The position numbers and the translations under genes are program-made. The notes beneath the pieces were generated by a model. It had not been told where the DNA came from and searched no databases. It saw nothing but the letters and a program-made list of their open reading frames with translations. Source: a candidate division WOR-3 bacterium (GTDB lineage Bacteria; Hydrothermota; Tepidihabitantia; Tepidihabitantales; Tepidihabitantaceae). Taken from it: DNA of 43,218 bases. This document shows, piece after piece, positions 2,980 through 35,958 of the stretch (positions are counted from its first letter, which is position 1; each line of letters begins with the position of its first letter). The DNA is taken from the NCBI GenBank assembly GCA_016867815.1, contig VGIR01000015.1, positions 1-43,218 on the forward strand, in the 5' to 3' direction.

Positions 2980-5502
2980 CTAGTGCTGCAGCACTATCGG
3001 CCCAGGCTGGGTGAGAGTCTTCACAACGTGTCCGTGTCCGTCGTCGAACTGGAACAGATACCAGTGTTCTCCGGCCGCGAGCGGCGTCTGGTAGACGAAC
3101 CACATCCCGGCGACCGGTTCTCCACCTCCCGGTATCATCCTTTGTTGCACACCGTCAACCACGGCCGAGTGCTCAACCGGCAAGTCTCCGTCCGGATCAC
3201 GATAGAGCACGCGATAGACGAAAGGCATCCCGGCCAGGCCGGAGTCAGGCTGCACCTGTCCTGAGTCGAGTACCGGCGCCCGGTTCTCGGCTGTGCCCGT
3301 GAACACCGGCTGGGTCAGGCGGTCGTTTCCGGGGTTGCTGTCACCCGCAAGGATGGTCTGGAACGATGCTTCGTAGCTGTTGCCCGGCCCGCCTGGAGTC
3401 CAGGCGCTGAATACCACGTCGGCCGTGACCCCGGGACCCAGGCCGTTGACGGTCCGCGTGTCGTGATACACCTGTGTTCCGGCCGAGTCCACCCGGCACG
3501 AGACAGTCAGCATGCGGATGGTATCCCGTCCGTAGTTCTCCACGACCGCTTCCGGCGCAACCGGCGTCTGGCCCGGAATTTCCAGCCGTGGGGCCAGGGC
3601 GTTCTTCACCCCGGCGTCAGCTCTCTCCTGCGGCCGGCCGGCAATCGCCAGGTTGGCGGCGTTGATGATGCTGTCGTACACCATATTCCCCGTGAAGGTG
3701 ATGTCGTGGCAGGGGGTGAACCCTTCCGGCGCTTTCCCGCCCGCCGGCCGCACCCGCACGGTCTTGCCTTTGAGCGCGGGCGGTTCGGCCACGAGCACGT
3801 CAATCCAGCCGTCGCCCGCGGCCTCGATATGCCCTTTGAGTTTCAGTTCCACGGGTCTGGCCTTGGTTACCCAGCCCGGCTGGCCAAAGCTGTCCAGCTT
3901 GATGGAATCAGGAGTAAGTACGCCCCGCACGTTGACCGTGTTGCAGGGCTTCACGAAATCCGGCAGCGGCCTGCCGGGTGGCAGCTTCCACTTCCGCACC
4001 GTGCAGAACAGCCACTCCGGATCCTGGATGTGGAACGTCACTACGCCATCCTTCACCTCGCGCACGTGTCCGCGGTAGACTAGCTTCTCGCCACGGGTGT
4101 TGATGGTTACGCCGGTCGCGTCGTAGATGCTGTCCGACAGCCGGCCCTTGAGGGATACCCACTTGCAGTAGCCGATGCCGGGCGGCAGTTTGACCCCTTC
4201 CTTCATCGTCACGCGGCGCGTGTGGCAGTACTGCCACCCCGGCCTGGTGATGTGCATCGTGAACTCGCCCTTGTCCGGGTCTGCCGACTGGACGTGACCG
4301 TAGAAGTTGACTTCGGGAGACTCCCGCTCGTCCGCTCCGCTGATGGTCGGAACCGTGTCCAGGTGGCCTTTGGTAATCGTCACCCACTTGCACTCCTGCA
4401 GCCAGTCGGGCAGCGAGTCCGGGGGCTTCCACTTGAAGGTGTAGGTGGATTCCTTCATGAAGTCCGGTCCGCCGAAGTGTACTACCACCAGGCCATTCTC
4501 CCGGTCCACGCTCTGGACGTGCCCCCACGCGCCTTCGACATTGAGTGAGACGGTGCTGCTCTTGGCCGTGTAGGTGGTATCCTTCTTCTGCACCAGGATG
4601 GTGGCGTCCGAGCAGACGTTGAGCAGGCAGAAGTCGAGTTCCTTCCTTCCCACCTTTATCCGCGAACCCGGGTTCATCACTATCTTTCGCAGCGTGCCGG
4701 TGCGGTCTTTGAGCGTCACGGTCTTGGGCCCGTTCGGCTTGGGCTGTTCCACCGCTTCCACGTGGCCGGAGAACCGCTTCCAGGTCTGGGGCTTGTCCGT
4801 CTTCTTGATGGCGTCGCTTCTCTCGCTGTCCGCGCTCTTGCCCGCCTCCTGCATTGCGTCCTGCAGGTTCGCTCCCTTTGGCACACTGGCCAGGTCTTCG
4901 TTGAATTTGGTCGGCCAGTCCCGGCCGCCCCAGGTGACGGTCCTGTTCTTCTCGTCGATGATGCCGTCGCCGCTGGCTGTCGTCCCGCCGGTGCTCGACT
5001 GGGCGATGATGACGTGCGGGTCCGCGTTGGTCACATTGTCGATGAAGTTGCCGCTGTAGCAGGAGTGGTCAACGATGATCACCTTGCAGGTGCAGAGGCT
5101 ACGCAGCCCGGCTGAGTCCAGAAACCAGCTCACCAGTTCGGACGCGGTCACCGAACCGATGTTGCCCCGCCGGCGGAACTCGAGGTTCCCGCCTGACGCG
5201 CTGCCGTGCCCGTTGTAGTAGAAGACGATGGAATCCCCGCACTTCACTCTGCCCTTGAGTCTCTTGATGGCGGCAAGCAACTCGCCTTCGGACTTGGCGC
5301 TGTCCATGTTCGTCACCCCGCGCTCGCCGACGAGCCTCGCGAATTCCCGCGCCCAGGCTTCCATCTGCGGACCCATCAGGGGATCTCCACCCGCGGCCCA
5401 GATGCCGTAGTTCTCAGCCCGCGCCGGGACCCACAGAAGGAGGACGGCCAGCAGCGCGAAACCCGCCGCCGGACCGACGTCGAATGACGGGTGCCGTCTC
5501 AT
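2980..5502 (-). CDS. Secreted caspase-like (clan CD) protein with five repeat modules
   Basis: 840-residue protein with a signal peptide (residues ~12-29). The N-terminal domain (~30-200) has clan CD cysteine-peptidase hallmarks: YYNGHG with His99 and IVDHSCYSG with Cys148, spaced as in C13/C14-type peptidases. From about residue 240 to 610 there are five copies of a ~75-residue module starting GHVEAV, GHVQSV, GHVQSA, GHVREV and GHIEAA; several carry a conserved cysteine before the closing strand. A C-terminal CARDB/Ig-like stretch follows. The start is ATG 5502, overlapping the upstream stop as ATGA and preceded by AAAGGGGG; the longer frame to 5733 is only the upstream gene read out of frame. 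The two catalytic residues are seen; proteolysis of an exported substrate is inferred. I do not recognise the GHV module. Confidence 0.8.
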   Translation of the reverse strand: MRRHPSFDVGPAAGFALLAVLLLWVPARAENYGIWAAGGDPLMGPQMEAWAREFARLVGERGVTNMDSAKSEGELLAAIKRLKGRVKCGDSIVFYYNGHGSASGGNLEFRRRGNIGSVTASELVSWFLDSAGLRSLCTCKVIIVDHSCYSGNFIDNVTNADPHVIIAQSSTGGTTASGDGIIDEKNRTVTWGGRDWPTKFNEDLASVPKGANLQDAMQEAGKSADSERSDAIKKTDKPQTWKRFSGHVEAVEQPKPNGPKTVTLKDRTGTLRKIVMNPGSRIKVGRKELDFCLLNVCSDATILVQKKDTTYTAKSSTVSLNVEGAWGHVQSVDRENGLVVVHFGGPDFMKESTYTFKWKPPDSLPDWLQECKWVTITKGHLDTVPTISGADERESPEVNFYGHVQSADPDKGEFTMHITRPGWQYCHTRRVTMKEGVKLPPGIGYCKWVSLKGRLSDSIYDATGVTINTRGEKLVYRGHVREVKDGVVTFHIQDPEWLFCTVRKWKLPPGRPLPDFVKPCNTVNVRGVLTPDSIKLDSFGQPGWVTKARPVELKLKGHIEAAGDGWIDVLVAEPPALKGKTVRVRPAGGKAPEGFTPCHDITFTGNMVYDSIINAANLAIAGRPQERADAGVKNALAPRLEIPGQTPVAPEAVVENYGRDTIRMLTVSCRVDSAGTQVYHDTRTVNGLGPGVTADVVFSAWTPGGPGNSYEASFQTILAGDSNPGNDRLTQPVFTGTAENRAPVLDSGQVQPDSGLAGMPFVYRVLYRDPDGDLPVEHSAVVDGVQQRMIPGGGEPVAGMWFVYQTPLAAGEHWYLFQFDDGHGHVVKTLTQPGPIVLQH

Positions 5503-6617
5503 CGCCCGCCCCCTTTCGTCTCCAGGAAGATGACATGCCTGTCTCCGGCCAGCTCCTCGGGCGTCACCCATATCCAGTTGCGGTTCAGGCTCGGCCACCA
5601 GTTGCGCACCTCCACGCCCAGCTCCCCGGTGGAGGCGTCCACGAAGACGTAGCGCGTCGGGCGCGCAAAGTAGGAGAGGGGCCGGTCGTTCACCCAACCG
5701 AACCAAGTCGGCTTGGAGAAGGTCTTCTGCCACGGGTTGTCGCTCGCCTCAGCCAGGGTGTCGGCCGGCCCCAGCGGCGCCCGGCCGAGAAAGGCCACGA
5801 CATCGTGGTCCAGGCTCTCCGGCTTGATGACCTGCTTCAGGATGATGGCGACGACCTCTTCGCGCGTCAGCATCCGGGCGGTCTTCCCCATGGCAAGACG
5901 CCGAGTTTCGCTTGTCCCGCCCGGGCTGCCGGTCACCTGCCAGGCAAAGTCCTCGCCGGATTCCAGCGCCTGTGCAGAACTCGGGTAGACCAGACTGGTG
6001 CCGACCATGTCCCGTTTCTCGAACCACGGCAAGTTGACGCTCATCGCCTCCTCTTTGGTCTGGCCGGGCAGCAGTTGGACCAGCTTCAGGCCAAAGGTCA
6101 CCCGGCCCGAGGGCCTCGGCACCGGTGGCGCCCAGACGAATTGAGGATACCTCGCTCTGACGGTGTCACCATCACGCGGCGAGATCAGCCTCGGCGGGCC
6201 CATCGGCTTCACTTCGAACCCGTTCGAGTCGCCGACATCGAACGGCTTCAGGACGAGTTCGAAGCTGTACCGGCCCTGAGGCAGAGTCCCCTGCCGCGTA
6301 AGGAAGGCCTCGTAGCCGGGCGCGGTCTTGGTCTCGTCAATGGTCACGCTGTGGTAGCCAAAGACCTTTGTACCCCGGGTCAGCGAGAACGTCTTCGTCT
6401 TCGCCCAGAACACCTGCCCCTGCCGCGCTTCAAGCACGAAACCTTCAAACCAGACGTTGTCGTAGGAGCTGTCGGAAACGACCGTGGCCTTCCACAGGTC
6501 TTCGATGCCGTACCGCCCCGGCGGCGGAACTGACAGTCTTACGAGTACCTGCGCGGCCGATGCAACCGCCAGCGAGATCGCTATCATCGCGGCGGCGAGG
6601 ACGGGTCTGCGTCTCAA
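5499..6617 (-). CDS. Secreted protein of unknown function, first gene of the operon
   Basis: 372-residue protein with an N-terminal signal peptide (RRRPVLAAAMIAISLAVASA). I do not recognise a named family. Visible traits are a beta-rich first half, a central PRLISPRDGDTVRARYPQFVW segment typical of Ig/fibronectin-like surface domains, and a C-terminal region rich in Trp. I prefer the TTG at 6617: AAAGGAG lies five bases upstream and the signal peptide follows at once. The frame extends to an ATG at 6653 without a ribosome site. Its stop overlaps the ATG of the caspase-like gene (ATGA), indicating translational coupling. A promoter-like TTGACG-N18-TAGAAT lies at 6730-6759. Role unknown; the coupling suggests a partner or substrate of the caspase-like protein. 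Confidence 0.65.
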   Translation of the reverse strand: MRRRPVLAAAMIAISLAVASAAQVLVRLSVPPPGRYGIEDLWKATVVSDSSYDNVWFEGFVLEARQGQVFWAKTKTFSLTRGTKVFGYHSVTIDETKTAPGYEAFLTRQGTLPQGRYSFELVLKPFDVGDSNGFEVKPMGPPRLISPRDGDTVRARYPQFVWAPPVPRPSGRVTFGLKLVQLLPGQTKEEAMSVNLPWFEKRDMVGTSLVYPSSAQALESGEDFAWQVTGSPGGTSETRRLAMGKTARMLTREEVVAIILKQVIKPESLDHDVVAFLGRAPLGPADTLAEASDNPWQKTFSKPTWFGWVNDRPLSYFARPTRYVFVDASTGELGVEVRNWWPSLNRNWIWVTPEELAGDRHVIFLETKGGGR

Positions 6618-13373: not shown

Positions 13374-13376
13374 ATA

Positions 13377-13800
13377 GGGATCGAGAGATCAAGGGATCGA
13401 GTGATCGAGAGAAGCTCAGGAGCTACCGCGACCTCAAAGTGTGGCAGCGGAGCTACGCCACATCGCTGAAGGTGTATCGCCTGACCATCGGCTTTCCTGC
13501 AGGTGAGCTGTACGGCCTCGTGTCGCAAATGCGCCGAGCCGCCATCTCAATTCCATCGAACATCGCGGAGGGGTACGGGCGTCACAGTTCGGCCGAGTTT
13601 CTCCGGTCGCTGCGCATAGCCTATGGATCGAACTGTGAGTTGGAAACGCAGGTTATGATTGCCTGCGATCTGCGCCTGCTGACGGCCGAAGATTCCAAGG
13701 GTCTCCGGAACGACATCCACGAGGTGGAGCTAATGCTTGCCAGCCTGATGCGCACCATCAAGCGTCGCTCGATCTCTCGATCTCTGGTTCCCTCGATCTC
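13377..13800. mobile_element. Four-helix-bundle cassette 1 with inverted octamer arms (GATC class)
   Basis: Left arm 13377-13408 is exactly four octamers (form GNGATCNA). Right arm 13769-13800 is exactly four octamers of the opposite orientation (TCGATCTC, with one TGGTTCCC). The arms can pair almost throughout and enclose the four-helix-bundle gene. The left arm starts three bases after the stop of the PLP-enzyme gene; the right arm ends just before the first codons of threonine synthase. I infer an inserted unit; there is no transposase inside. Confidence 0.65.
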
Positions 13801-13813
13801 TGAAAAGAGGTGA
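13439..13813 (+). CDS. Four-helix-bundle protein, S23/IVP-like (cassette 1)
   Basis: 124-residue member of the four-helix-bundle family (TIGR02436; related to the S23/IVP proteins encoded in 23S rRNA intervening sequences and to Avd of diversity-generating retroelements). The core signature RRAAISIPSNIAEGYGR is present, followed by LRIAYGSNCELETQ. It starts at GTG 13439. The frame is open further upstream and reads SYRDLK directly before it, which matches the usual N-terminus, but no earlier start codon exists, so the 5' end may be altered. The last ~15 residues (RRSISRSLVPSIS) are encoded by the right octamer arm. The role is unknown; family members are thought to bind nucleic acid or partner proteins. 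It is the most divergent of the three copies here. Confidence 0.85.
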   Translation: MWQRSYATSLKVYRLTIGFPAGELYGLVSQMRRAAISIPSNIAEGYGRHSSAEFLRSLRIAYGSNCELETQVMIACDLRLLTAEDSKGLRNDIHEVELMLASLMRTIKRRSISRSLVPSISEKR

Positions 13814-13855: not shown

Positions 13856-15241
13856 GTGGACTTGAAAGGCGCTCTTCTCCAGGGCCAGGCCCCGGACAAG
13901 GGTCTCTACATGCCGCGCGAGATTCCGAGAATCCCGCTCGACGAGATTGTCGGGTTCCGCGACAAGAGCTACCCCGAGATCGCCTTTGCCGTCCTGAAGC
14001 GTTACACCCAGGGCCTGATCCCCGATGACGAACTGGTGCGGCTGTGCGCCGAGTGCTACAACTACGACGTGCCGCTGGAAAAGGTGTACGACCGGAACTA
14101 CCTTATGCGGCTCGACCAGGGCCCGACCGCGAGTTTCAAGGACTTCGCGGCCCGGATGATGGCGCGGATGATGCGCTACTTCCTGAAAATGGGGACTGTA
14201 CCTCCTGGTGGACTGTCCCCATTTTCGAATTCGGATCGTGTCTCAGACCATTCGGACAATCTCGTCATCCTCACGGCCACCTCCGGTGACACCGGCTCGG
14301 CGGTCGCCAACGCCTTCCACAACGTGGACGGTATCTCGATGGTGGTGCTCTTCCCGATCAAGGAGGTCTCTGACCGCCAACGGAAGCAGATGACCACACT
14401 CGGCGGTAACGTCTCGGTCATCGGCGTGGACGGTCAGTTCGACGACTGCCAGGCTCTGGTCAAGCTCGCCTTTGCCGACCCGGCACTGAAGCGTATCCGC
14501 TTCTCGTCGGCCAACTCCATCAACATCGGCCGGCTTCTGCCGCAGGCGGTCTACTACCTGTATGCCTGGGCCAAGCTGCAGGAGAAGGGCGAGGCAGCGG
14601 TCATCTCGGTTCCATCCGGCAACTTCGGCGACATCTGCGGCGGCCTGATTGCCCGGCAGATGGGTCTGCCGGTCGCACGCTACGTCATCGCCACCAACGC
14701 CAACGATGAGTTCCCGAAGTTCGTCGCCACGGGCAGGTACGAGAAGATCGTACCCTCGCGCGTCTGCATCTCCAACGCGATGAACGTCGGCCACCCGTCC
14801 AATCTGCCGCGGCTCGTGGCCTTGTATGGTGGCGCGATGGATGAGCAGGGCAAGGTCTCCAAGGAGCCAGACTTTGCGGCGATACGGCGCGACATCTACG
14901 CCGTCAGCATCGACGACGAAGGAACCCGACAGGCAATCAAGGACGCCTGGGCCAGGTACAAAACGATGCTCGAGCCGCACGGCGCGGTCGGCTGGGCCGG
15001 ACTGGTCCGCTACCTGGAACCCTTGAATCCTGGAATCCTTGAATCCTCCCCTCTGGCCATCTCCATCGAAACCGCCCACCCGGCCAAGTTCCCCGAGGAA
15101 ATCCAGCGTTTGCTCAGCGTCGACCCGCCGCTGCCGCCCTCGCTCGCCGGCCTCGACACTAAGCCGGAGCACTACGAGAAGGGTCCGAATGACTACGGGT
15201 GGTTCTCCGATTTCCTTAATCGGAAGTTCCCAAGAGGTTGA
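13856..15241 (+). CDS. thrC: Threonine synthase
   Basis: PLP fold-type II enzyme converting O-phosphohomoserine to threonine. Seen: GPTASFKDFAAR (PLP lysine, about residue 95), TATSGDTGSAVA, PSGNFGDICGGL, AMNVGHPSN and the C-terminal ETAHPAKFPEEI. The GTG at 13856 is the first standard start, but the frame continues upstream as LLYSTNLHSPDV, the normal beginning of the family. The only upstream start options before the stop at 13811 are CTG 13814 or ATC 13817/13820, behind a GAGGT at 13807. So translation probably starts at a rare codon, or the start was lost when cassette 1 inserted. Two foreign-looking inserts sit in the frame: a REP-like hairpin (14185-14226) after RYFLK, and four octamers (15015-15046) after VRYL. 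The M42 peptidase gene follows after three bases. Confidence 0.93.
   Translation: MDLKGALLQGQAPDKGLYMPREIPRIPLDEIVGFRDKSYPEIAFAVLKRYTQGLIPDDELVRLCAECYNYDVPLEKVYDRNYLMRLDQGPTASFKDFAARMMARMMRYFLKMGTVPPGGLSPFSNSDRVSDHSDNLVILTATSGDTGSAVANAFHNVDGISMVVLFPIKEVSDRQRKQMTTLGGNVSVIGVDGQFDDCQALVKLAFADPALKRIRFSSANSINIGRLLPQAVYYLYAWAKLQEKGEAAVISVPSGNFGDICGGLIARQMGLPVARYVIATNANDEFPKFVATGRYEKIVPSRVCISNAMNVGHPSNLPRLVALYGGAMDEQGKVSKEPDFAAIRRDIYAVSIDDEGTRQAIKDAWARYKTMLEPHGAVGWAGLVRYLEPLNPGILESSPLAISIETAHPAKFPEEIQRLLSVDPPLPPSLAGLDTKPEHYEKGPNDYGWFSDFLNRKFPRG
14185..14226. repeat. REP-like hairpin inside thrC
   Basis: GAAAATGGGGAC (14185-14196) and GTCCCCATTTTC (14215-14226) are perfect 12-bp inverted arms around an 18-base loop. 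The GGGGAC core matches the ends of the RAYT unit at 318-1063. The insert keeps the frame open and adds residues roughly from MGTVPPGG to SPFS between two conserved blocks of threonine synthase. Confidence 0.75.
15015..15046 (+). repeat. Octamer array inside thrC (NNGAATCC class)
   Basis: Four units in register: TGGAACCC, TTGAATCC, TGGAATCC, TTGAATCC. They encode EPLNPGILES in a loop before the conserved ETAHPAKFPEEI block. Same class as the hairpin at 18505-18574. Confidence 0.75.
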
Positions 15242-15244
15242 GTC

Positions 15245-16294
15245 ATGCGCATAGATGAGAAACTGACCGAGTACGTAGTTGAGCAGGTCGTCCGGCTGGT
15301 CAAGACACCCAGCCTGGCTGGCCACACCGACCAGGCCATCAGCTACGTTGAACAAGAGCTGACCCGGTCCGGCATCAAGAACCGTCGCACCGGGCGCGGC
15401 GCGCTGCTGGCAACGCTTGAGGGCCGGGAGCCCGGCCCGCACCGGGCGCTGACCGCCCACGTAGATACATTGGGCGCGATGGTAAAGGAGGTGTCGAGCG
15501 ACGGCTCGCTCGTGTTCACACCGGTCGGCGGCTACGCACTGGGCACGGTCGAAGGTGAGTACGTGACGATCGAACCCGGCTCAGGGAAGCCCCTCCGCGG
15601 CACCATCCTGTTCGACGAGCCGTCCGCCCACGTCAGCAAGAAGATAAACGACACCAAGCGCGAGTTCGACAACATGAGAATCCGTCTCGACTCCGAGGTT
15701 CACAACGAAAAGGACGTTGCGAGGCTCGGCATCGCAGTCGGCGACTACGTTCACTTCGACCCACGCTGCGAGGTGACCGAGACCGGGTTCGTCAAAACCC
15801 GTCACCTCGACGACAAAGCCGGAGTGGCGTGTCTGCTTGGTTCTCTGAAGGCACTGGCCGATTCAGGAACGCGTCCGCGCCTGACGACGCACTTCTTGTT
15901 CAGCACGTCAGAAGAGGTCGGGTTCGGCGCCTCAGCGGGAATCCCAAACGAAGTCACGGAACTGGTCGCCGTTGACATGGGCGCGGTCGGCAAGGGTCAG
16001 GAGTCGGACGAGTACTCGGTCTGCATCTGCGCCAAGGACTCAACCGGGCCGTTTGACTACGCCTTGCGGCAGCGGCTGGTGAAACTGTGCCGCTCGAAGA
16101 AGATACCCTTCAAGGTCGACATCTACCCGTTCTACGGCTCGGACGCAGCCGTTGCCGTACGGGCCGGGTTGGATGCAGTCACCGGGCTTATCGGCCCGGG
16201 CATCAACGCATCGCACAACCTCGAACGGACTCACCGCAAGGCCCTGGCCGCAACTGTCCGGCTGATTCTCGCGTACGTCATGGGAGAGAAGTGA
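15245..16294 (+). CDS. M42 family metallo-aminopeptidase
   Basis: 349-residue M42 (glutamyl/deblocking aminopeptidase, FrvX-like) peptidase, typically a large dodecameric cytoplasmic complex that trims peptides using two metal ions. Putative ligands and catalytic residues seen: TAHVDTLG (His and Asp), RHLDDKAG (bridging Asp), STSEEVGFGA (catalytic Glu pair), VAVDMGAV (Asp) and ASHNLERTH (His near the C-terminus). Length and motif order are normal. It starts at ATG 15245, three bases after thrC and preceded by AGAGGT, so it is translated from the same operon. The stop TGA lies inside the first octamer (GTGATCAA, 16291-16298) of cassette 2, so the octamer array begins precisely at the end of this gene. 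Confidence 0.9.
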   Translation: MRIDEKLTEYVVEQVVRLVKTPSLAGHTDQAISYVEQELTRSGIKNRRTGRGALLATLEGREPGPHRALTAHVDTLGAMVKEVSSDGSLVFTPVGGYALGTVEGEYVTIEPGSGKPLRGTILFDEPSAHVSKKINDTKREFDNMRIRLDSEVHNEKDVARLGIAVGDYVHFDPRCEVTETGFVKTRHLDDKAGVACLLGSLKALADSGTRPRLTTHFLFSTSEEVGFGASAGIPNEVTELVAVDMGAVGKGQESDEYSVCICAKDSTGPFDYALRQRLVKLCRSKKIPFKVDIYPFYGSDAAVAVRAGLDAVTGLIGPGINASHNLERTHRKALAATVRLILAYVMGEK

Positions 16295-16825
16295 TCAAGT
16301 GGTCTAGTGGTCGAGTGATCTAGTGGCAGACAGAACACAGGTAAGGACCTATCAGGACTTGACCGCGTGGCAGAAGGCGTTTAACTTGTGCGCCGACGTC
16401 TATCAGGCCACGAAGCGGTTTCCCCGAAGTGAAGTCTACGGGCTCGCCGGTCAGATGCAGCGGGCCGCCGTGTCCATACCATCAAACATCGCCGAAGGCT
16501 TCGGACGACGCACGACAGCCGATTTCCTGCGCTCGCTCTACATTGCCTACGGCTCAATCTGTGAACTCCAGACCCAGGCGCTTCTAACGACGAAGCTGTG
16601 CTACCTGTCTGACAAAGAGTCTGCGCCGCTGCTTCAGTCGATTGGCGACACCGAACGTCTGACGAAGGCTCTCATCCGCGCGCTCGAGCGTAAGCTCTCT
16701 TCGCCTTCCTCCACTTGACCACCGGACCACTTTCCTCTCCCTCCCATGACCACTGGACCACTAGAACACTCGACCACTGTCCGCTCCCGTCACTTGACCA
16801 CTAGACCACTGGGCCACTAGACCAC
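16291..16825. mobile_element. Four-helix-bundle cassette 2 with inverted octamer arms (GTGGTC class)
   Basis: Left arm 16291-16322: four units GTGATCAA, GTGGTCTA, GTGGTCGA, GTGATCTA. Right arm 16715-16825: ten units of the reverse form TNGACCAC at 16715-16730, 16746-16777 and 16794-16825, separated by short degenerate stretches. The arms enclose the four-helix-bundle gene. They supply the stop of the upstream gene, the start and the stop of the enclosed gene, and end at the base before the apgM ATG. Confidence 0.7.
16323..16718 (+). CDS. Four-helix-bundle protein, S23/IVP-like (cassette 2)
   Basis: 131-residue four-helix-bundle protein (TIGR02436 type). The N-terminus TYQDLTAWQKAFNL, core QRAAVSIPSNIAEGFGR and LYIAYGSICELQTQ are all canonical. 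It is clearly closer to the copy at 26868-27239 than to the one at 13439. The GTG start at 16323 is the first three bases of the fifth octamer in the left arm, and the TGA stop (16716-16718) is part of the first octamer of the right arm. There is no Shine-Dalgarno sequence; the octamers occupy that position. The function is unknown. The position, between an M42 peptidase and apgM in the same direction, is consistent with an inserted cassette using host operon transcription. Confidence 0.88.
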   Translation: MADRTQVRTYQDLTAWQKAFNLCADVYQATKRFPRSEVYGLAGQMQRAAVSIPSNIAEGFGRRTTADFLRSLYIAYGSICELQTQALLTTKLCYLSDKESAPLLQSIGDTERLTKALIRALERKLSSPSST

Positions 16826-18043
16826 ATGCGTTATGTCGTCTTTCTCGCCGACGGCGCTGCCGACTTTCCGGTCCCCGAGCTCGGTGGAAAGACCCCGCTG
16901 CAGGTAGCAAGGAAGCCCGCTATCGACCGCATCGCCCGGCTCGGCCGCTGCGGCTCGTTCGTCACGGTTGACGAAGACATGCCGCCCGGTTCCGAGGTCG
17001 CTAACCTGACCGTGCTCGGGTACGACCCGCACGAATGCTACCAGGGCCGCGGCGTCATCGAGGCCGCTTCGATGGGCGTCAAGCTGAACGACGCCGACAT
17101 CGCGATGCGTTGTAACCTGATCTGCGTCGCGGACGGCCGAGTCAAGAACCACTCGGCCGGCCACATCTCAACCGAAGAAGCGCACAAGCTCATCCGCCAC
17201 GTTGACCGCTACATCGGCGGCGACGACGCCCACTTCTTCCCCGGCATCTCCTACCGACACCTGATGGTGCTCGACCAGGGCTCTACCGACTTCGACTGCT
17301 TCCCGCCCCACGACCATGTCGGCGAGAAGGTCGAGGACCTGATGATTGTCCCGAAGTCCGAAGAGGCCAAGCCGACGGTCGCCCGGCTGAACGACATGAT
17401 TCGTGGTTCTTGGAACCTGCTGCCGCACCACTCGGTCAACCGGGAACGGGTCAAAGCCGGGAAAGACCCGGCCAACTCCATCTGGTTCTGGTCACAGGGC
17501 CGCAAACCCAAGATGAAGACCCTGAAGGAACAGTACGGCATCACCGGCGCGGTCATCTCTGCGGTCGACCTGATCAAAGGACTCGGCGTCTACGCCGGGC
17601 TCGACGTAATCGACGTACCCGGCGCGACCGGTCTCATTGACACCAACTATGAAGGCAAAGCCGACGCCTGCCTGAATGCGCTCGCAGACCACGACTTCGT
17701 CTTTGTCCATGTTGAGGCATCGGACGAAGCAGCGCACGCCAAGGACTTGAAGCAGAAGATCCTTGCCATCGAGTATCTCGACTCGCGCCTGGTCACGCGG
17801 GTGATGAAGGGGGTTGAGGAGAAAGGCATCGCGGCCACGGTTGCGGTCCTGCCTGACCACATGACGCCGGTTGCCGAGGGCAATCACGTCCACGGTCCGG
17901 TTCCGGTCGCGATACTGACTCCGGACGTCGCACCCGACTCAGTCCAGGCGTACGACGAAGCCGCCTGCGCTTCAGGTTCCCTCGGAATGCTGCACGGCTC
18001 CGACTTCATCAGAACTGTCTTGAACCGAAACTCCGGTCGCTAG
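16826..18043 (+). CDS. apgM: Archaeal-type cofactor-independent phosphoglycerate mutase or proposed homoserine kinase
   Basis: 405-residue alkaline-phosphatase-superfamily protein of the ApgM family. Seen: LADGAADFP (metal Asp), DMPPGSEVANLTVLGYDP (nucleophile-serine region), NHSAGHIS, VHVEASDEAAHAKDL (metal Asp/His) and LPDHMTPV (Asp/His). A subgroup of this family (TIGR02535) is proposed to be a homoserine kinase in genomes lacking ThrB. The same-strand gene order with threonine synthase fits that role; glycolytic mutase activity is the alternative. It starts at ATG 16826. No ribosome site is present because octamers run right up to the ATG, so translation may be leader-dependent or coupled. 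The stop TAG (18041-18043) is the first three bases of another octamer, TAGACCAC. Confidence 0.85.
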   Translation: MRYVVFLADGAADFPVPELGGKTPLQVARKPAIDRIARLGRCGSFVTVDEDMPPGSEVANLTVLGYDPHECYQGRGVIEAASMGVKLNDADIAMRCNLICVADGRVKNHSAGHISTEEAHKLIRHVDRYIGGDDAHFFPGISYRHLMVLDQGSTDFDCFPPHDHVGEKVEDLMIVPKSEEAKPTVARLNDMIRGSWNLLPHHSVNRERVKAGKDPANSIWFWSQGRKPKMKTLKEQYGITGAVISAVDLIKGLGVYAGLDVIDVPGATGLIDTNYEGKADACLNALADHDFVFVHVEASDEAAHAKDLKQKILAIEYLDSRLVTRVMKGVEEKGIAATVAVLPDHMTPVAEGNHVHGPVPVAILTPDVAPDSVQAYDEAACASGSLGMLHGSDFIRTVLNRNSGR

Positions 18044-18064
18044 ACCACTGGGTCACTTGACCAC
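18041..18064 (-). repeat. Octamer array at the apgM/YfiM-like junction
   Basis: Three units of the reverse form: TAGACCAC (contains the apgM stop), TGGGTCAC, and TTGACCAC (contains the TTG start of the next gene). Confidence 0.75.
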
Positions 18065-18497
18065 TGCGCCCCTTCTCCTCGTCCTCGCCCTTCTCGGCCA
18101 ACCGCCACTGTCCAACATGCCCGACTCGCTGCGCCGTCCTCCGCTCGATCCCTTGATCTCTCGATCTCCTGATTCCTTTCCTCACACTCGACCACTGGAC
18201 CACTTGACCACGAGGCCGATTTCTCCTGAGCCCGACCGCTGGCTCGCTATAGACAAGTTCTGGCACTTCTCGGCCAGCTTCGTCACCGTCGGCGCGGCGT
18301 ATCACTTTGGCAGGGACCGAGTCAACCTCTCACAGCCGTTGTCCACGGGAATTGCGACGGGCGGTATCCTGACACTGGGTGTCACAAAAGAGCTCTACGA
18401 CCTGGTCGGCCCGGAAAAGCACTTCTCCTGGAAGGACCTGGTGGCCGACGCAGCCGGTATCTGCGCCGGTTACTTCGCCTTCATCCACCGCTACTGA
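18057..18497 (+). CDS. YfiM/DUF2279-like small exported protein
   Basis: 146-residue protein. An N-terminal hydrophobic stretch (PLLLVLALLG) serves as signal peptide or anchor. The conserved part starts at about residue 58: WLAIDKFWHFSASFVTVGAAYHF, then ITLGVTKELYDL-type sequence and FSWKDLVADAAGICAGY, as in YfiM/DUF2279 proteins of the envelope. The TTG start at 18057 is the beginning of an octamer unit. Between signal and domain lies a ~35-residue linker encoded by octamers (18145-18211), giving DPLISRSPDSF and PLDHLTTRP. The frame is maintained throughout, so the gene may work with an elongated linker. The function of the family is not established. Confidence 0.7.
   Translation: MTTAPLLLVLALLGQPPLSNMPDSLRRPPLDPLISRSPDSFPHTRPLDHLTTRPISPEPDRWLAIDKFWHFSASFVTVGAAYHFGRDRVNLSQPLSTGIATGGILTLGVTKELYDLVGPEKHFSWKDLVADAAGICAGYFAFIHRY
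18145..18211 (-). repeat. Composite octamer array inside the YfiM-like gene
   Basis: Units 18145-18176 are of the TNGATCNC class (TCGATCCC, TTGATCTC, TCGATCTC, CTGATTCC). Units 18188-18211 are of the TNGACCAC class (three perfect). Two octamer classes therefore meet in one array. Confidence 0.8.
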
Positions 18498-26778: not shown

Positions 26779-26785
26779 TAGGAGA

Positions 26786-27319
26786 GTGCTCTAGTTCTCA
26801 AGTGCACAAGTGCGAGAAGAGAAGTGCTCTCGTGTTCCGGTGCAAGGAGGAGAAGGGCACAGAGGCTCTAGAGCTGTGCGCGTTTCCGTTCCAGAGCGCG
26901 TATGAACGCCTTGGTCAGCCTCTCGACATCGCCGGCAGACTGAAGCAAGCTGACGCTCGTGTTGCTCTTGATGTACCCGAGCTCGGTGGCGAGCATAATC
27001 TGTGTCTGCAACTCGCAGATGGAGCCGTAGGCTATGTAGAGGGATCGCAGGAAATCGGGGGTCGTGCGTCGGCCGAATCCCTCGGCGATGTTCGATGGTA
27101 TTGAAACCGCAGCCCGCTGCATCTGGGCAGCAAGGCCGTAGACTTCCGACTTCGGGAAGCACTTCGTCGCACGGTAGACGTCGAGGCTGAGGGAAAACGC
27201 CTTCTGCCAGGCCCTCAGATCCCGGTACGTGTCAGCCATCTGTCAACGGACCGCACTTGCGCACTGGGGCACTCGTGCACTTCGTTCCCGCGGACTGGTG
27301 CACTCGAGCACTAGAGCAC
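26786..27319. mobile_element. Four-helix-bundle cassette 3 with inverted octamer arms (GTGCTC class), between tatA and tatC
   Basis: Left arm 26786-26847: seven units such as GTGCTCTA, GTTCTCAA, GTGCACAA, GTGCTCTC. Right arm 27249-27319: about nine units of the reverse form, such as TAGAGCAC, TCGAGCAC, TGGTGCAC, TCGTGCAC. They enclose the four-helix-bundle gene and fill the whole tatA-tatC gap. Confidence 0.7.
26868..27239 (-). CDS. Four-helix-bundle protein, S23/IVP-like (cassette 3)
   Basis: 123-residue four-helix-bundle protein (TIGR02436 type) with canonical N-terminus ADTYRDLRAWQKAFSLSLDV, core QRAAVSIPSNIAEGFGR and LYIAYGSICELQTQ. It is highly similar to the copy at 16323. It starts at ATG 27239; no clear Shine-Dalgarno sequence. 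It is oriented with the tat operon and would be transcribed between tatA and tatC. Its role is unknown; nothing in the sequence links it to Tat function, so the position is more simply explained by cassette insertion. Confidence 0.9.
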   Translation of the reverse strand: MADTYRDLRAWQKAFSLSLDVYRATKCFPKSEVYGLAAQMQRAAVSIPSNIAEGFGRRTTPDFLRSLYIAYGSICELQTQIMLATELGYIKSNTSVSLLQSAGDVERLTKAFIRALERKRAQL

Positions 27320-27326
27320 TATCGGG

Positions 27327-30523: not shown

Positions 30524-32038
30524 GTGAAGACGAAGCCGGGCTTCGCTGTCCGAGTCCTGCGCTGGCTGATACAGCTCGCGTTCCTGTTCCTATTCATTGC
30601 GCTCTTCACCCGCATCCGCTACGGTGCCTCGCCCGCCCTCTCCGACATCTTCTTCCGTTTCGACCCGCTGCTCTTCCTCGTGATCTCGATTGCGAACCGG
30701 GCGGTGCTGGCCGCAGGTCTGCTCTCCCTCGTCGTCGTCGCGGCCACCTTCCTCTTCGGCCGCTTCTTCTGCGGGTTCGTCTGCCCGCTGGGCACGACTG
30801 TTGACCTGGCCGGCGCCGTGCTCAAGCGCAAGAGCCCGCCGGCCGACGCCTGGCGCCGGGGCAAGTTCTTCACTCTCATCTTCCTCGTGGTCGCCGCCGC
30901 GGTCGGCGCATCATTTGTCGGTTTCTTCGACCCGCTGGCCATCCTCTCGCGCTCGCTCACCCTCGTCTTCTACCCCGGCACGTCGCACTTCATCGGGCTG
31001 GTCTCTGCCCTGCGCCCAGCGGTCTTCACCGAGACGCTGCTCGCCCTCGCGTCCCTGGTGTTCATCCTCGGGCTCGGTCTTGCCGCCCCGCGCTTCTGGT
31101 GCCGCAACCTCTGCCCTCTGGGCGGCCTGCTGGGGTTGATTTCCAGGTTCTCCTTCTTCAAGTTCTCGTTCCGCGGGGAGTGCAAAGCCTGCGGGCTATG
31201 CGCGAAGGCCTGCCCGACCGGCGCCATCGACTCCGGACGCGCAAGAGTCGACGCCGCCGAGTGCATCGGCTGCCTTGCCTGTCTGCACGCCTGCCCGGAC
31301 AGCGTCATCGCGTACTGCGTGAAGCCCGTACCGCAGCCCCTGGACGTTGGCCGCCGCGAGGCCATCATCGCATTGGGCTCCGGCCTGGTCGCTGCCCCGC
31401 TGGCCAGGTCCGTCGTCCACCGCAAACTGCAGGGCCGCCTGCTCCGGCCGCCGGGCTCGATACCGGAACCCGATTTCCTCAACGCCTGCATCCGCTGCGG
31501 CCGCTGCATGAAGGCCTGCCCGACCAACGGGCTCCAGCCCGCGGTCCTCGAGTCCGGGTTCGACGGGCTCTGGACCCCCCGCCTCGCACCCCGCATCGGC
31601 GCGTGCGAGAAGAACTGCAATCTCTGCGGACAGGTCTGTCCGACCGCGGCCATCCGCAACCTGCCGCTTGAAGAGAAGACTTATGCGCGCATCGGCACCG
31701 CGGTGATCGACCGGTCGCGCTGCCTGGCCTGGGAACAGGACCGCGCCTGCCTCGTCTGCGACGAGGCCTGCCCGTACAACGCCATCGATTCGCGCAACCA
31801 GACGATACTCGCCACGACACTGGGCCGGCCGTTCGTGAATGAGGCGGCCTGCGTCGGCTGTGGACTGTGCGAGTCGCGCTGCCCGATCGATGGCCCGGCC
31901 GCAATCCAGGTCTTCTCCATGGCCGCTGACCGGAAGAAGACGGGCTGGTACAAGACGCCGGAGAAGGCCCGGCTCCGCTCCTGCGGCGACGAACCGCAGG
32001 AGGATCTCCCCTCCGGTTTCATCCAAGAAGAGCAGTGA
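30524..32038 (+). CDS. Membrane polyferredoxin (NapH/NosR-type 4Fe-4S protein)
   Basis: 504-residue membrane protein. The N-terminal half has about five hydrophobic segments with NapH/MauN/NosR-type motifs FFCGFVCPLGT and FWCRNLCPLGG. A soluble part follows with 4Fe-4S motifs: CKACGLCAKACP, CIGCLACLHACP, CIRCGRCMKACP, CEKNCNLCGQVCP, CLVCDEACP and CVGCGLCESRCP. An internal RREAIIALGSGLVAAPLA segment resembles a Tat-like RR plus hydrophobic stretch between the first and second ferredoxin pair. It likely moves electrons between the membrane quinone pool and a periplasmic partner; the adjacent DUF362 protein is the obvious candidate. It starts at GTG 30524. Its stop overlaps the GTG of the next gene. 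Confidence 0.88.
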   Translation: MKTKPGFAVRVLRWLIQLAFLFLFIALFTRIRYGASPALSDIFFRFDPLLFLVISIANRAVLAAGLLSLVVVAATFLFGRFFCGFVCPLGTTVDLAGAVLKRKSPPADAWRRGKFFTLIFLVVAAAVGASFVGFFDPLAILSRSLTLVFYPGTSHFIGLVSALRPAVFTETLLALASLVFILGLGLAAPRFWCRNLCPLGGLLGLISRFSFFKFSFRGECKACGLCAKACPTGAIDSGRARVDAAECIGCLACLHACPDSVIAYCVKPVPQPLDVGRREAIIALGSGLVAAPLARSVVHRKLQGRLLRPPGSIPEPDFLNACIRCGRCMKACPTNGLQPAVLESGFDGLWTPRLAPRIGACEKNCNLCGQVCPTAAIRNLPLEEKTYARIGTAVIDRSRCLAWEQDRACLVCDEACPYNAIDSRNQTILATTLGRPFVNEAACVGCGLCESRCPIDGPAAIQVFSMAADRKKTGWYKTPEKARLRSCGDEPQEDLPSGFIQEEQ

Positions 32039-35000
32039 CCGAGCTGCTCCTCTGCCTTCTTGCCGTGACCGCGAAGGGCACGGCTGACCGTCCCATAATC
32101 CTCGACGGCGCGACTGACTCCTACGCCTCGGAGTTTCTCTTCTTCGCCACTGACTACGGCATCTACACTTTCGACCGCAATTCCGAAACCTGGAGCCGGA
32201 TTACCACGGCGAGCGGTCTGCCTTCGAACCGGGCGCTGGCACTCGGCCTCGACGAGGGCGTGCTCTGGGTCGCGACCGACTCCGGCCTCGCTTCGGCCGA
32301 CGTCCGGGTCAGCGACTGGCAGACGTACGACCTGCCCGGAACCGTACGCGCGCTCGCCTTCGACGACCGCTACGTCTGGGCCGGAGGCGACTCGGGCCTG
32401 GCGCGGTTCGACAAGTACTCGGAAACCTGGCAGCACCAACTTCTCGACACGCCGGTTCTGGATTTGCTCGCTGAGAAAGAAGGACTCTGGATAGCGTCGG
32501 ACGCCGGCGTGCTCCGCTACGACCCGAAGTTCGAGCGCATCGACCAGACCCCGGCCCCGGCCGACTCCTACGCGCGCATCATCGCCACGACCAGCCGGAT
32601 CTGGTTCGCGGGCGGCTCCCGGCTGGCCGGCTACCGGAAAGACGCCGCGTCCTGGTCCGAGCAGAGCCCCATCCGGGTCGCCGACTTCTCCACGCTCGGT
32701 GACACTGTACTCTGCGCCGTGAGCGGCAGCCCGTTCCTCTTCGACCCCGGCTCGGACCGCTGGAGCGTACCGCAGCTCATCGGCCTTCCCGAGGGCGTGA
32801 CTGATGCATTCCTGACCGCTTCGGAGATGACGTTCGCGTCCCCTGCGGGCCTGTTGGTCCTCGATACCAAGAACAACACCCGGCAGGTCTGGACCGGAAG
32901 CAACGGCCTCGAGGACGCCGCCCTCGTCCGGGTGTATACCGATCAACGCTTCATCTACGCCCTGACCGCAGGCAGCATCCAGTACTTCGACCGCCAGCAG
33001 GCGCTCTGGAAACGCGAGGAGTTCGTACCGCCGCAGGCGCGCAGGGAGCAACTCGCCTTTCTCGACGACGCGGGTGCGCACTTGAGAATTGTGCCCGGCA
33101 CCGACATTCGGCTCTCCGGGCGCGCCTACTACTCGCAGACCCGCACGTTCTCGGGCGGCGCTGTCACCACCAGCGACTTCGAGAACTTCGGCCTCAACCT
33201 TGCGGCCCAGCACCGGTCGGGCCGTACGCTCTCGCTCTTCTACGACGATTCGGACAAAGACCAGGTCGCCTACGGCCTCGGGTATCGGGGCATCGCGAAC
33301 GACCTGCTCCACCGCGCCAGCGGCGGCAAGCTGAGATCTGAATACCTCGAGTTCGACCTCATCCCGCAATTCTCCCTCTTCGGTGCGAACGCGCGCCTCG
33401 TCCTTCCCCGTTCCCCGACCCCTGACCCCCGATCCCTGGCTCTGGACCTGCAAGCCGGCCGTATCGAATCCGCGCTCCGCTCTGAATTCTTCACCGGCCG
33501 CTCGGTGGACAAGGAAGTAACCAGGCCCGACGTCAACTACGCGCGCGGTCTCTTCTACCGCATCCCCAATCGCTCATCGCTCCTCACTTCTCGCCCCTTC
33601 CTCTGGGACACTCTCTTCGCCGACGACCGCAACCCGGCGACGAATACGCCCCGCACCCGCACCGGCTTAACGGTGGGCGGCGTCATCGGCGACTTCGACC
33701 CGCTCGTCCGCGGCACGGACTACTTCGTCGACCGCGACGGCGGCGTCATCCACCTGCTCGGCGCGCGCAACCCCGACGACGCACTCGTCCTGGTGACAGA
33801 CGCGGGCGCGCAAGTCCTCCAGTCCGAGTCGGTCACCGGCAACGCGCTGAAAAACACCTACTTCTTCGGGCCGGACATCACGCCCGGGACGTTTGAACTC
33901 GTGATTACCGATACCACCGGCGCCGTCCGTGCCCTGTCCGAGTTCGGCCTCGACGACGACCGCGACGGCAGGGTCGACCCGGCATTCATCAACCACGACC
34001 TTGGATTCCTGACTCTCCCCTCGCCCATTGTCGCCGACTCCCTCTCTCCCTCGCTCTACTCCCTGCGCGCGTCATACCGTTCCCAGTCGGCCTTCTACGG
34101 CCTCAGACACGCTCCGGTCGTGCGGAACAGCGAAACTGTGCTGGTCGACGGCGTGGCGATGACCCGCGGGTCCGACTACGTGATGGACTACACCTCGGCC
34201 ATCCTCCTCTTCCTCAAGAAAGACGCGGTCACCGACTTCAGCCAGATTGACGTGCGGTATTCGTCGGTCGAAAAGCCGGAAACCTGGACGACGAAGCAAA
34301 TGCTCTTCTCGGGCCAGCCCGCCATTGCCTTCGGCCGGGGCGTGATGCTGGCACCGGGCTTCTCGCGGGTCGCAGACGAGAACATCGTCCACCTTTCGGG
34401 ACGGGCCGAGGCGGGCGCAGGCACCGACAAGAGCCTGAAGTTCGCGCCCCAGCTGGCAGTCAACACCGACGGGGCGCTGGCGCAGGACTACTCCCTGAAC
34501 GGGAACTACCGCATCTTCAGCGCCGCAGCCCAGTACCGCGGATTCGCCCCGGGGTTCGAAGAGTTCGGCGCGGGAGATCGGCGCTATGGCCAGCTCCGCC
34601 ATTCGGCCGCTGCCACGGTCGGGGTCGAGCCGCTGTCGCAGCTCCGCTTCGACGGGTCGTTCAAGCGCGAGTACCTCGCCGACACTCTCTCCAGCGCTTC
34701 GCTCCAGGCTGCGAACTACCTGTCCGGCAAGCTGAGCTACCTCAACCCGAAATACCCGAACGGCTTCGTGCTTCTGGCCAATGACCGCCTGCCGGACGGC
34801 AACAAACTCCGGGCCAAGGCAAACGCGGGCTACGAGTTCACGCTCCTAAAATCCAAACTCAAGCTGAGCGGCATAGTCCAAAACACCTCACTCGACCACT
34901 TGACCACTGGACCACTTGACCACTCCCTTGAGTACATCGCCGAGGCGACCTTCGCCCTGCCCTTCCCGGTCCAGGGCAGCGTCCGCTACCGGAACAACGG

Positions 35001-35958
35001 CCTGTCGAGCGACGGCGAAAAGACGCGCCGCGACGACGAACTGCGCGGCCAGCTCAATGTCGACGTCGTTCCCGGCCTTTTCTACACCGGCTCATACAAA
35101 CTCGAGTCCGAGGCGAGCCCGCTCGGCCCAAGCCAGGACCTCGCACTCCAGAGCTACTTCTACAACAATCTGCAGATCGCGCCCGGCCGCTGGTGGTCCA
35201 GGCTCTCGGTCGTCAACTTCTCGCTTGGCACCGGCTCCAACTTCGACGAGTACGTACGCAACCTCGACTCCGCCTACGCCCGGCCGTTCCTGCTCCTCTC
35301 TCCTCTCTCCTCCCTTCCCGGCTCGGCCGCCATCTCCTCCGCCAATGACCTCCGGACTCTCTACGGCACGGTGCAACTCCAGCCCTTCACCCGTCTCACC
35401 CTCCGCGCCAGACGCACGCTGGGCAACAACGGCACCGCCTACTACGGCCTGCCCGAGCTCAAGCCCTCGACCGAAGACGAACTTCGGGCCGAGTACGAGC
35501 CGGAGCACCTCGGCATGTTCACCGCCCTCTTCAACTCGCGCGTCGCCTCCGGCCTGCCGAAGACCACGCGCCGCAACCTCTACTTCGAGTGGAACATGCC
35601 CTGGTCGGAACTCCTCCGCACGCGACTCACCACCACCTACGGTTTCGACGCGGAGTTCTACGGCGCGGCGCTGACCCTGCACCCGCAGAGCATCACACCC
35701 AATGCCGAGGCGCTCTTCCGCTTCAACTCCCGCTCCTACGCCACCGTCGGCTTCGGCATGGCCTGCGAACAGCGGACGTTCTCGGCCACGGGTTCGGGCT
35801 GGGTCCCCGACCCCTGGAAGGTCTCCCTCCGCCCGGCCGCGGGGTTCAACCTGAACCTGCTCAAGTTCCTCTACGTCCAGCTCAACTACCAGTCCGCCTT
35901 CGTCCTCTCGGGCACGCCGACCCACACCCTCTCCGGCCGCCTCACCGCTCAATTCTAG
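32035..35958 (+). CDS. Large propeller plus outer-membrane beta-barrel protein
   Basis: 1307-residue protein. The N-terminus (LLLCLLAVTAKG) is a short signal peptide. Residues ~25-330 contain repeated propeller blades (YGIYTFDRNSETWSRIT, ALGLDEGVLWVATDSGLA, YVWAGGDSGLARFDKYSETW) as in two-component-regulator-like propellers. The remainder is beta-rich, with Tyr/Phe-girdled strands (LRFDGSFKREYLADTL, LFYTGSYKLESEASPLG), and ends in ...LSGRLTAQF with terminal Phe, a barrel signature. It starts at GTG 32035 in a GTGA overlap with the polyferredoxin gene, so it is coupled to that operon. One perfect octamer array (34892-34923) and a 7-bp array (33411-33440) are embedded in frame. The cargo or ligand is unknown. 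Confidence 0.75.
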   Translation: MTELLLCLLAVTAKGTADRPIILDGATDSYASEFLFFATDYGIYTFDRNSETWSRITTASGLPSNRALALGLDEGVLWVATDSGLASADVRVSDWQTYDLPGTVRALAFDDRYVWAGGDSGLARFDKYSETWQHQLLDTPVLDLLAEKEGLWIASDAGVLRYDPKFERIDQTPAPADSYARIIATTSRIWFAGGSRLAGYRKDAASWSEQSPIRVADFSTLGDTVLCAVSGSPFLFDPGSDRWSVPQLIGLPEGVTDAFLTASEMTFASPAGLLVLDTKNNTRQVWTGSNGLEDAALVRVYTDQRFIYALTAGSIQYFDRQQALWKREEFVPPQARREQLAFLDDAGAHLRIVPGTDIRLSGRAYYSQTRTFSGGAVTTSDFENFGLNLAAQHRSGRTLSLFYDDSDKDQVAYGLGYRGIANDLLHRASGGKLRSEYLEFDLIPQFSLFGANARLVLPRSPTPDPRSLALDLQAGRIESALRSEFFTGRSVDKEVTRPDVNYARGLFYRIPNRSSLLTSRPFLWDTLFADDRNPATNTPRTRTGLTVGGVIGDFDPLVRGTDYFVDRDGGVIHLLGARNPDDALVLVTDAGAQVLQSESVTGNALKNTYFFGPDITPGTFELVITDTTGAVRALSEFGLDDDRDGRVDPAFINHDLGFLTLPSPIVADSLSPSLYSLRASYRSQSAFYGLRHAPVVRNSETVLVDGVAMTRGSDYVMDYTSAILLFLKKDAVTDFSQIDVRYSSVEKPETWTTKQMLFSGQPAIAFGRGVMLAPGFSRVADENIVHLSGRAEAGAGTDKSLKFAPQLAVNTDGALAQDYSLNGNYRIFSAAAQYRGFAPGFEEFGAGDRRYGQLRHSAAATVGVEPLSQLRFDGSFKREYLADTLSSASLQAANYLSGKLSYLNPKYPNGFVLLANDRLPDGNKLRAKANAGYEFTLLKSKLKLSGIVQNTSLDHLTTGPLDHSLEYIAEATFALPFPVQGSVRYRNNGLSSDGEKTRRDDELRGQLNVDVVPGLFYTGSYKLESEASPLGPSQDLALQSYFYNNLQIAPGRWWSRLSVVNFSLGTGSNFDEYVRNLDSAYARPFLLLSPLSSLPGSAAISSANDLRTLYGTVQLQPFTRLTLRARRTLGNNGTAYYGLPELKPSTEDELRAEYEPEHLGMFTALFNSRVASGLPKTTRRNLYFEWNMPWSELLRTRLTTTYGFDAEFYGAALTLHPQSITPNAEALFRFNSRSYATVGFGMACEQRTFSATGSGWVPDPWKVSLRPAAGFNLNLLKFLYVQLNYQSAFVLSGTPTHTLSGRLTAQF
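33411..33440 (+). repeat. Short 7-bp tandem array inside the large barrel gene
   Basis: Units of the form ACCCCTG/ACCCCCG/ATCCCTG in tandem, encoding PRSPTPDPRS. The period is 7 rather than 8, so this may be a relative of the octamer arrays or an independent microsatellite. Confidence 0.5.
34892..34923 (-). repeat. Octamer array inside the large barrel gene (TNGACCAC class)
   Basis: Exactly four units: TCGACCAC, TTGACCAC, TGGACCAC, TTGACCAC, read in frame as LDHLTTGPLDH. The same peptide LDHLTT arises from octamers in the YfiM-like gene. Confidence 0.85.

What the first reader, a model, noticed from the sequence alone, without database searches (positions are those of the whole stretch)
16291..18064. 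Octamers supply start and stop codons at gene junctions
Seen: the stop of the M42 peptidase is the TGA within GTGATCAA (16291-16298). The start of the cassette 2 gene is the GTG of the next octamer position (16323), and its stop is the TGA of TTGACCAC (16715). The array ends on the base before the apgM ATG. The apgM stop is the TAG of TAGACCAC (18041), and the next gene starts at the TTG of TTGACCAC (18057). Because 8 is not a multiple of 3, three or more units show each stop and start triplet in all three frames. Inference: such arrays can close any incoming frame and reopen translation, which would let a cassette enter an operon with little harm. They also displace ribosome sites.
Basis: partly seen in the sequence, partly recalled or inferred. 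Interest (0 to 1): 0.75.

Follow-up and report, generated by a model that had tools for sequence, protein, structure and literature searches.

The report
Octamer arms of mobile IVP cassettes
The eight-letter repeats at these gene junctions are the matching inverted ends of a small gene cassette (a "23S rRNA intervening-sequence protein" gene) that has spread through the operons of many bacteria, and the start and stop codons found in the repeats are mostly a side effect of where those ends sit.

Summary
The coordinates are right: stops and starts of M42, the cassette gene, apgM and the next ORF lie in or against GTGGTCNA octamers. The general claims fail. Codon-octamer coincidences are no commoner than placement within the same gaps predicts (stops 4 vs 3.5, starts 3 vs 2.9), and only 2 of 31 arrays carry stops in all three frames. 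Relatives do show at least three junctions where an array replaced a native stop, so the effect is real but incidental.

The octamers are the arms of an IVP (PF05635) cassette. Of 74 distinct IVP loci from WOR-3 and several other phyla, nearly all are flanked by inverted copies of a 7- or 8-bp array (median score 17 vs 8 for cross-pairs and 8.5 for 247 control genes). A second set of 19 loci outside WOR-3 repeats this. Repeat period follows the IVP tree (3 changes vs 18 shuffled). Arms hold about five units; the family's solved homologue is a pentameric ring. Solo arrays match arms of their own genome; three relatives without IVP have almost none. Orthologous operons give empty, filled, decayed and differently filled sites. 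Cassettes in operons are always sense (46:0).

Best reading: an IVS-like, REP/RAYT-like selfish cassette outside rRNA. Arm recognition and RNA processing are inferred.

The parts
16289..16327 (+). left arm of cassette b: five GTG-cores GTGATCAA GTGGTCTA GTGGTCGA GTGATCTA GTGG
   Evidence: pairs with 16791-16825
16323..16718 (+). IVP gene b (PF05635, E 9.6e-34; PDB homologue 2gsc, E 1.7e-22); starts on the fifth GTG of the left arm, stops in the first right-arm octamer
16707..16730 (-). first right-arm block, TNGACCAC units
16746..16777 (-). second right-arm block
16791..16825 (-). third right-arm block, ends on the base before the apgM ATG; duplex with left arm -49.3 kcal/mol
16826..18043 (+). 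apgM (PF10143/PF01676); stop TAG lies in TAGACCAC
15245..16294 (+). M42 aminopeptidase (PF05343); stop TGA lies in GTGATCAA
18041..18064 (-). octamers carrying the apgM stop and the TTG start of the next ORF
18057..18497 (+). conserved ORF with signal-peptide-like N-terminus; array start TTG also used in G001, ATG in G003
13376..13412 (+). left arm of cassette a, units GRGATCNA, five cores
13400..13813 (+). IVP gene a (PF05635, E 2.4e-33); no canonical in-frame start upstream of the domain, first at 13439, possibly decayed
13765..13801 (-). right arm of cassette a, units TNGATCTC
26785..26813 (.). downstream arm of cassette c, GTGCTCNA-type
26868..27239 (-). IVP gene c, 76% identical to IVP b
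27252..27321 (.). upstream arms of cassette c, TNGNGCAC-type
15013..15047 (-). in-frame octamer array inside ThrC; relatives carry different octamers at the same loop, G006 and G008 none
18145..18168 (-). solo array TNGATCYC inside the ORF 18057-18497
18188..18211 (-). solo array TNGACCAC inside the ORF 18057-18497

Best explanation
The octamers are the two inverted arms of a mobile cassette that carries an IVP (four-helix-bundle, PF05635) gene in its loop. Each arm is about five tandem 7- or 8-nt units, and both arms of a cassette share one unit. The cassette sits in sense between cistrons of an operon. In the transcript the arms can pair into a long imperfect stem around the IVP ORF, as in 23S rRNA intervening sequences. 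I infer that the IVP ring recognises its own arm, roughly one unit per subunit, and so drives or regulates spread, with RNase III-type cutting of the stem in the mRNA. Solo arms and small hairpins are the non-coding members, as REPs are to RAYTs. Start and stop codons in arms arise because arms lie flush with ORF ends. Shown: anatomy, matching arms, phylogenetic tracking, insertion polymorphism, sense-only placement, co-occurrence of arrays with IVP. Inferred: binding, processing, mobility mechanism.
For: Inverted-arm score of 74 IVP loci: median 17.0 vs 8.0 cross-pairs and 8.5 for 247 control genes. Replication in 19 further loci outside WOR-3: 17.5 vs 8.5. RNA duplex of own arms -43.6 vs -15.6 kcal/mol for cross-pairs. 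Period 7 or 8 needs 3 changes on the IVP tree vs 18.1 shuffled, 0/500. Protein identity vs unit similarity, pairs under 60% identity: rho 0.165, 1/1000. Solo arrays match arms of their own genome, median 15.5 vs 10.5 for foreign arms, p 1e-6. Array density 0, 23 and 11 per Mb in genomes without IVP vs 150-320 in four IVP-rich ones; Spearman 0.75, p 0.02 over nine genomes. Empty, filled, decayed and differently filled orthologous sites; two IVP b copies in G005. In operons sense 46, antisense 0. Arm medians 37 nt (period 8) and 34-36 nt (period 7); solved relative is a homopentamer (PMC4990558).
Against: No transposase or obligatory RT identified: own genome has no PF00078 hit. G008 carries 7 IVPs but few arrays. 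Unit order is only weakly matched between arms (11/63 loci p<=0.05), so selection on the exact duplex is not proven. Unit number varies, five being the mode only. Orthologues inflate counts. Three of 74 loci lack visible arms. No target duplication found. Sense bias also follows if any operon gene needs read-through transcription.
Confidence: 0.65

Rival explanations
1. The arrays are translational adaptors: they exist because their frame-shifting period lets them close any incoming frame and reopen translation, so a cassette can enter an operon harmlessly.
For: Array stops replace native stops at at least three junctions in relatives; a mild excess of stops in arms, 18 vs 12.0 and 20 vs 16.3; GTG in all frames in 23 of 31 arrays in one orientation.
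Against: Coincidences at same-gap expectation; only 2 of 31 arrays stop all frames; most IVP starts lie outside the arm; arrays pass in frame through ThrC and apgM; no overall left-right codon asymmetry of arms.
Confidence: 0.08
2. IVP is a resident RNA-binding regulator: the arms are its mRNA sites, the stem sets cistron processing or stability, and the cassette is not an active mobile element.
For: Sense-only placement in operons; strong RNA duplexes; IVP kept at M42-apgM in three species.
Against: Presence/absence and replacement by a different IVP at the same junction, decayed copies, 12-31 copies in same-genus genomes; many partial or broken copies among the 25 hits of G038.
Confidence: 0.17
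3. The cassettes are moved in trans by another machinery (reverse transcriptase or REP-type Y1 transposase), IVP being an accessory or passenger.
For: Avd, the DGR accessory protein, is an IVP-like four-helix protein (own knowledge; Avd co-occurs with DGR RTs, PMC8934634); RTs occur in six relatives that have IVP and not in five genomes with few or none.
Against: Own genome and G005 have 27 and 19 IVPs but no detected RT (drafts, 95% and 88% complete); unit tracks the IVP, as for a recognition protein.
Confidence: 0.15
4. Passive short tandem repeats made by replication slippage happen to lie near small genes.
For: Heptamer and octamer arrays are common in intergenic DNA of this genome.
Against: Control genes lack matched inverted arrays; arm lengths cluster tightly; arrays nearly vanish in relatives without IVP.
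Confidence: 0.03

Closest known systems
23S rRNA intervening sequences (IVS) encoding S23p/IVP, e.g. Coxiella burnetii (PMC4990558)
   Same: IVP ORF in the loop of terminal inverted repeats; the Coxiella IVS also has tandem heptamers GACAGAT before the ORF
   Different: here between protein genes of operons, in up to 31 copies, arms made of 7/8-nt units that differ by IVP clade; RNase III excision untested
REP elements with REP-associated tyrosine transposases (RAYT)
   Same: protein gene flanked by inverted repeats, with many dispersed non-coding copies of its own repeat in the genome
   Different: IVP is not a Y1 transposase; arms are short-period arrays, not single REP palindromes
Cyanobacterial STRR and other heptamer arrays (e.g. 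TAACTGA in Beggiatoaceae, PMC4679880)
   Same: intergenic 7-nt arrays, often next to starts; Nostoc IVP loci are flanked by GAGTGCT arrays
   Different: previously treated as repeats alone; no link to IVP genes found in the papers searched
DGR accessory protein Avd
   Same: IVP-like four-helix fold and pentamer (own knowledge)
   Different: no RT detected in the own genome; inverted arms not described for Avd

Membership tests
PF05635 23S_rRNA_IVP | profile match over the full domain | tested here: met
   E 9.6e-34, positions 1-103 of 106
PF05635 23S_rRNA_IVP | homopentameric four-helix ring | not testable with these tools
   sequence match to 2gsc (5 chains in the entry); pentamer reported in PMC4990558
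23S rRNA IVS | IVP ORF inside inverted terminal repeats | tested here: met
23S rRNA IVS | located inside a 23S rRNA gene | tested here: not met
   lies between M42 and apgM; no Rfam hit in the window, no rRNA in 20 further IVP loci
23S rRNA IVS | excision by RNase III | not testable with these tools
   only duplex energies computed
REP/RAYT | Y1 tyrosine transposase between the repeats | tested here: not met
   the gene between the arms is PF05635 only
REP/RAYT | dispersed repeats cognate to the gene's flanks | tested here: met
   solo arrays match own-genome arms
DGR (Avd) | reverse transcriptase with template and variable repeats | tested here: not met
   no PF00078 hit in the own genome; template and variable repeats not searched for
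Classical IS/MITE | target-site duplication | tested here: inconclusive
   empty and filled sites compared by eye, none evident

The most novel reading that the evidence does not exclude
IVP genes and their five-unit arms are a pan-bacterial class of selfish cassette that lives in mRNA-coding operons. 23S rRNA IVSs are its rRNA-inserted members, and many bacterial 7/8-mer arrays (including some STRRs) are its solo arms. A pentameric IVP ring reads one unit per subunit. GxxExxY genes with three-unit arms would be a parallel class.
Probability: 0.35. Interest if true: 0.87.

Novelty: new variant of a known kind. Interest (0 to 1): 0.7.

Why it matters
IVP is a widespread 'hypothetical' family known mainly from 23S rRNA insertions and through Avd. 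Tying it to a cognate flanking array gives a testable role, would explain a large class of unexplained bacterial heptamer and octamer repeats, and shows that these cassettes reshape operons: replaced stop codons, new start codons, and in-frame linkers in enzymes.

Tried and rejected
Left-right asymmetry of start or stop codons in arms: none overall. Exact unit-order match between arms, as proof of duplex selection: weak. RT as obligatory partner: not supported in the own genome. rRNA location: none. Paper searches for a prior IVP-array link found none.

Full report
What the finding describes. The coordinates check out: the M42 stop TGA is in GTGATCAA (16291-16298), the next gene's GTG (16323) lies in octamer register, its TGA is in TTGACCAC (16715), the array ends at 16825 just before the apgM ATG, and the apgM TAG and the TTG at 18057 lie in octamers. 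Comparison with relatives supports the TTG start: the N-terminus LTTxPLLLxLAL is conserved in G001, with ATG at the homologous place in G003.

Is it more than chance? I used 20 stretches of the genome plus the window (443 kb). Of 34 intergenic GTGRTCNA arrays, 4 contain a stop (3.5 expected if each array is placed at random within its own gap), 3 a start (2.9) and 1 abuts a start (1.1). Against uniform placement in all intergenic DNA the expectation for stops is lower (1.5), because arrays lie in short gaps. The frame argument fails for stops: TAG and TGA need particular bases at the degenerate position, and only 2 of 31 arrays of at least 24 nt have stops in all three frames in either orientation; GTG is in all frames in 23 of 31 in one orientation. 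The sample is small and my gene caller did not call the IVP a and IVP b genes.

What the octamers are. The gene at 16323-16718 is PF05635, 23S rRNA-intervening sequence protein, with PDB homologue 2gsc, whose family is reported as a homopentameric ring of four-helix bundles (PMC4990558). Three such genes lie in the window and about 27 in the genome. Printing their flanks showed that each is bracketed by inverted copies of a 7- or 8-mer array, with a different unit for most genes but the same unit on both sides. Scoring upstream against reverse-complemented downstream flanks for 74 distinct IVP loci gave a median of 17.0, against 8.0 for mismatched pairs and 8.5 for 247 other genes; 47 of 74 exceed the 99th percentile of control genes. 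By eye 71 have matching arms. The loci include WOR-3 genomes and genomes titled Planctomycetota, Thermodesulfovibrionia, Kuenenia, Deltaproteobacteria, Desulfobacteraceae, Anaerolineae, Nostoc/Calothrix and Omnitrophica. Nineteen further loci outside WOR-3 gave 17.5 against 8.5. The window organism is close to MAGs titled candidate division WOR-3.

Arm anatomy. Arm lengths centre on 37 nt for octamers and 34-36 nt for heptamers, about five copies of a 5-nt core (4 periods + 5 = 37 or 33). Own arms pair as RNA at a median of -43.6 kcal/mol against -15.6 for mismatched arms. Unit order between arms is only weakly matched, so selection on an exact stem is not shown. A match of five units to a pentameric ring is suggestive only; five is the mode, not a rule.

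Array and gene belong together. Period 7 or 8 needs 3 changes on the IVP tree against 18.1 for shuffled labels (0 of 500; near-copies contribute). Unit similarity rises with protein identity even below 60% identity (rho 0.165, 1 of 1000 permutations). Solo arrays of this genome resemble the arms of its own IVPs (median 15.5) more than an equal number of foreign arms (10.5, p 1e-6). Array density is 0, 23 and 11 per Mb in three relatives without IVP and 150-320 per Mb in four IVP-rich genomes, while control periods are near zero except in G007. G008, with 7 IVPs, is a low outlier (20 per Mb).

Insertion polymorphism. The operon MetY-ThrC-(M42)-apgM was compared in nine genomes. ThrC-apgM is a 12-16 bp gap in G006 and G008. 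MetY-ThrC is a 3-nt gap in G001 and G002, filled by IVP a in G000 and G003, and filled by a different IVP (about 54% identical, unit GGGTTCNG) in G004 and G005. IVP b sits at M42-apgM in G000, G001 and G005, also at ThrC-M42 in G005, and at ThrC-apgM in G007. G002, G003 and G004 have arms without a gene at M42-apgM, and G003 has a left arm followed by only the first codons of IVP b at ThrC-M42. All 46 cassettes between codirectional genes are sense.

Codons as a by-product. Array insertion replaced the native stop of MetY in G004/G005 (AAG TAG became AAG GGG TTC TAG), of ThrC in G007 (PRG-QVA-TAG) and of ThrC in G001/G003/G005 (VFK-stop). Across 64 loci the IVP stop is in the right arm in 18 of the 24 frames that enter it (12.0 expected), and an upstream stop is in the left arm in 20 of 29 (16.3 expected). 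A start lies between arm and domain in 44 of 59 loci; the arm is the only source in 11. Use of an arm GTG as start is thus a feature of some lineages such as IVP b. Arrays also sit in frame inside ThrC in six same-genus genomes, at one loop, with different octamers in each, and inside apgM in several, so an array need not close a frame.

Mechanism. I favour a selfish cassette that works like a 23S rRNA IVS placed in mRNA, with dispersed solo arms as REPs are to RAYTs, and with IVP as the arm-recognition protein. Binding, RNase III processing and the transposition step are inferred. It is not a member of the IVS class by location, nor of REP/RAYT by enzyme. I found no paper linking IVP to such arrays in the searched library, which lacks most subscription journals. 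The nearest facts are the tandem heptamers and inverted ends of the Coxiella IVS (PMC4990558).

Parallel case. GxxExxY genes (PF13366) of WOR-3 genomes also carry inverted arms, of about three units with period 8-10, which suggests the architecture is not limited to IVP.

Noticed in passing
L058, L059, L143-L168: GxxExxY (PF13366) genes are flanked by inverted arms of about three units, period 8-10, often starting AACCAC; 16 loci scored, median 17.5
   Followed up: partly
window 15013-15047 and ThrC of L135-L139: Six same-genus genomes carry in-frame octamer arrays at one ThrC loop with different units in each; G006 and G008 have none, suggesting unit turnover in place
   Followed up: partly
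window about 14170-14260 (ThrC): A second in-frame insert in G000 and G003 with an inverted repeat AAAATGGGGACTGT...GGACTGTCCCCATTTT, REP-like
   Followed up: no
window 13400-13438: IVP a of this genome has no canonical in-frame start before its domain, while its G003 orthologue uses an octamer GTG; possibly decaying
   Followed up: partly
window 34889-34924: A clean TNGACCAC array lies inside the large ORF 32035-35958
   Followed up: no
G038 (genome of L053): A Desulfobacteraceae MAG with 25 IVP hits, many partial or with stops, as in a burst of a selfish element
   Followed up: no
G005 operon, L139 reverse-complement 5460-5600: The second IVP b cassette carries about 20 bp resembling the ThrC 3' end, as if copied from the ThrC-M42 site
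   Followed up: no
G007 stretches L221-L225: Arrays of periods 10, 11 and 13 are also frequent (120 per Mb each on average), unlike other genomes
   Followed up: no
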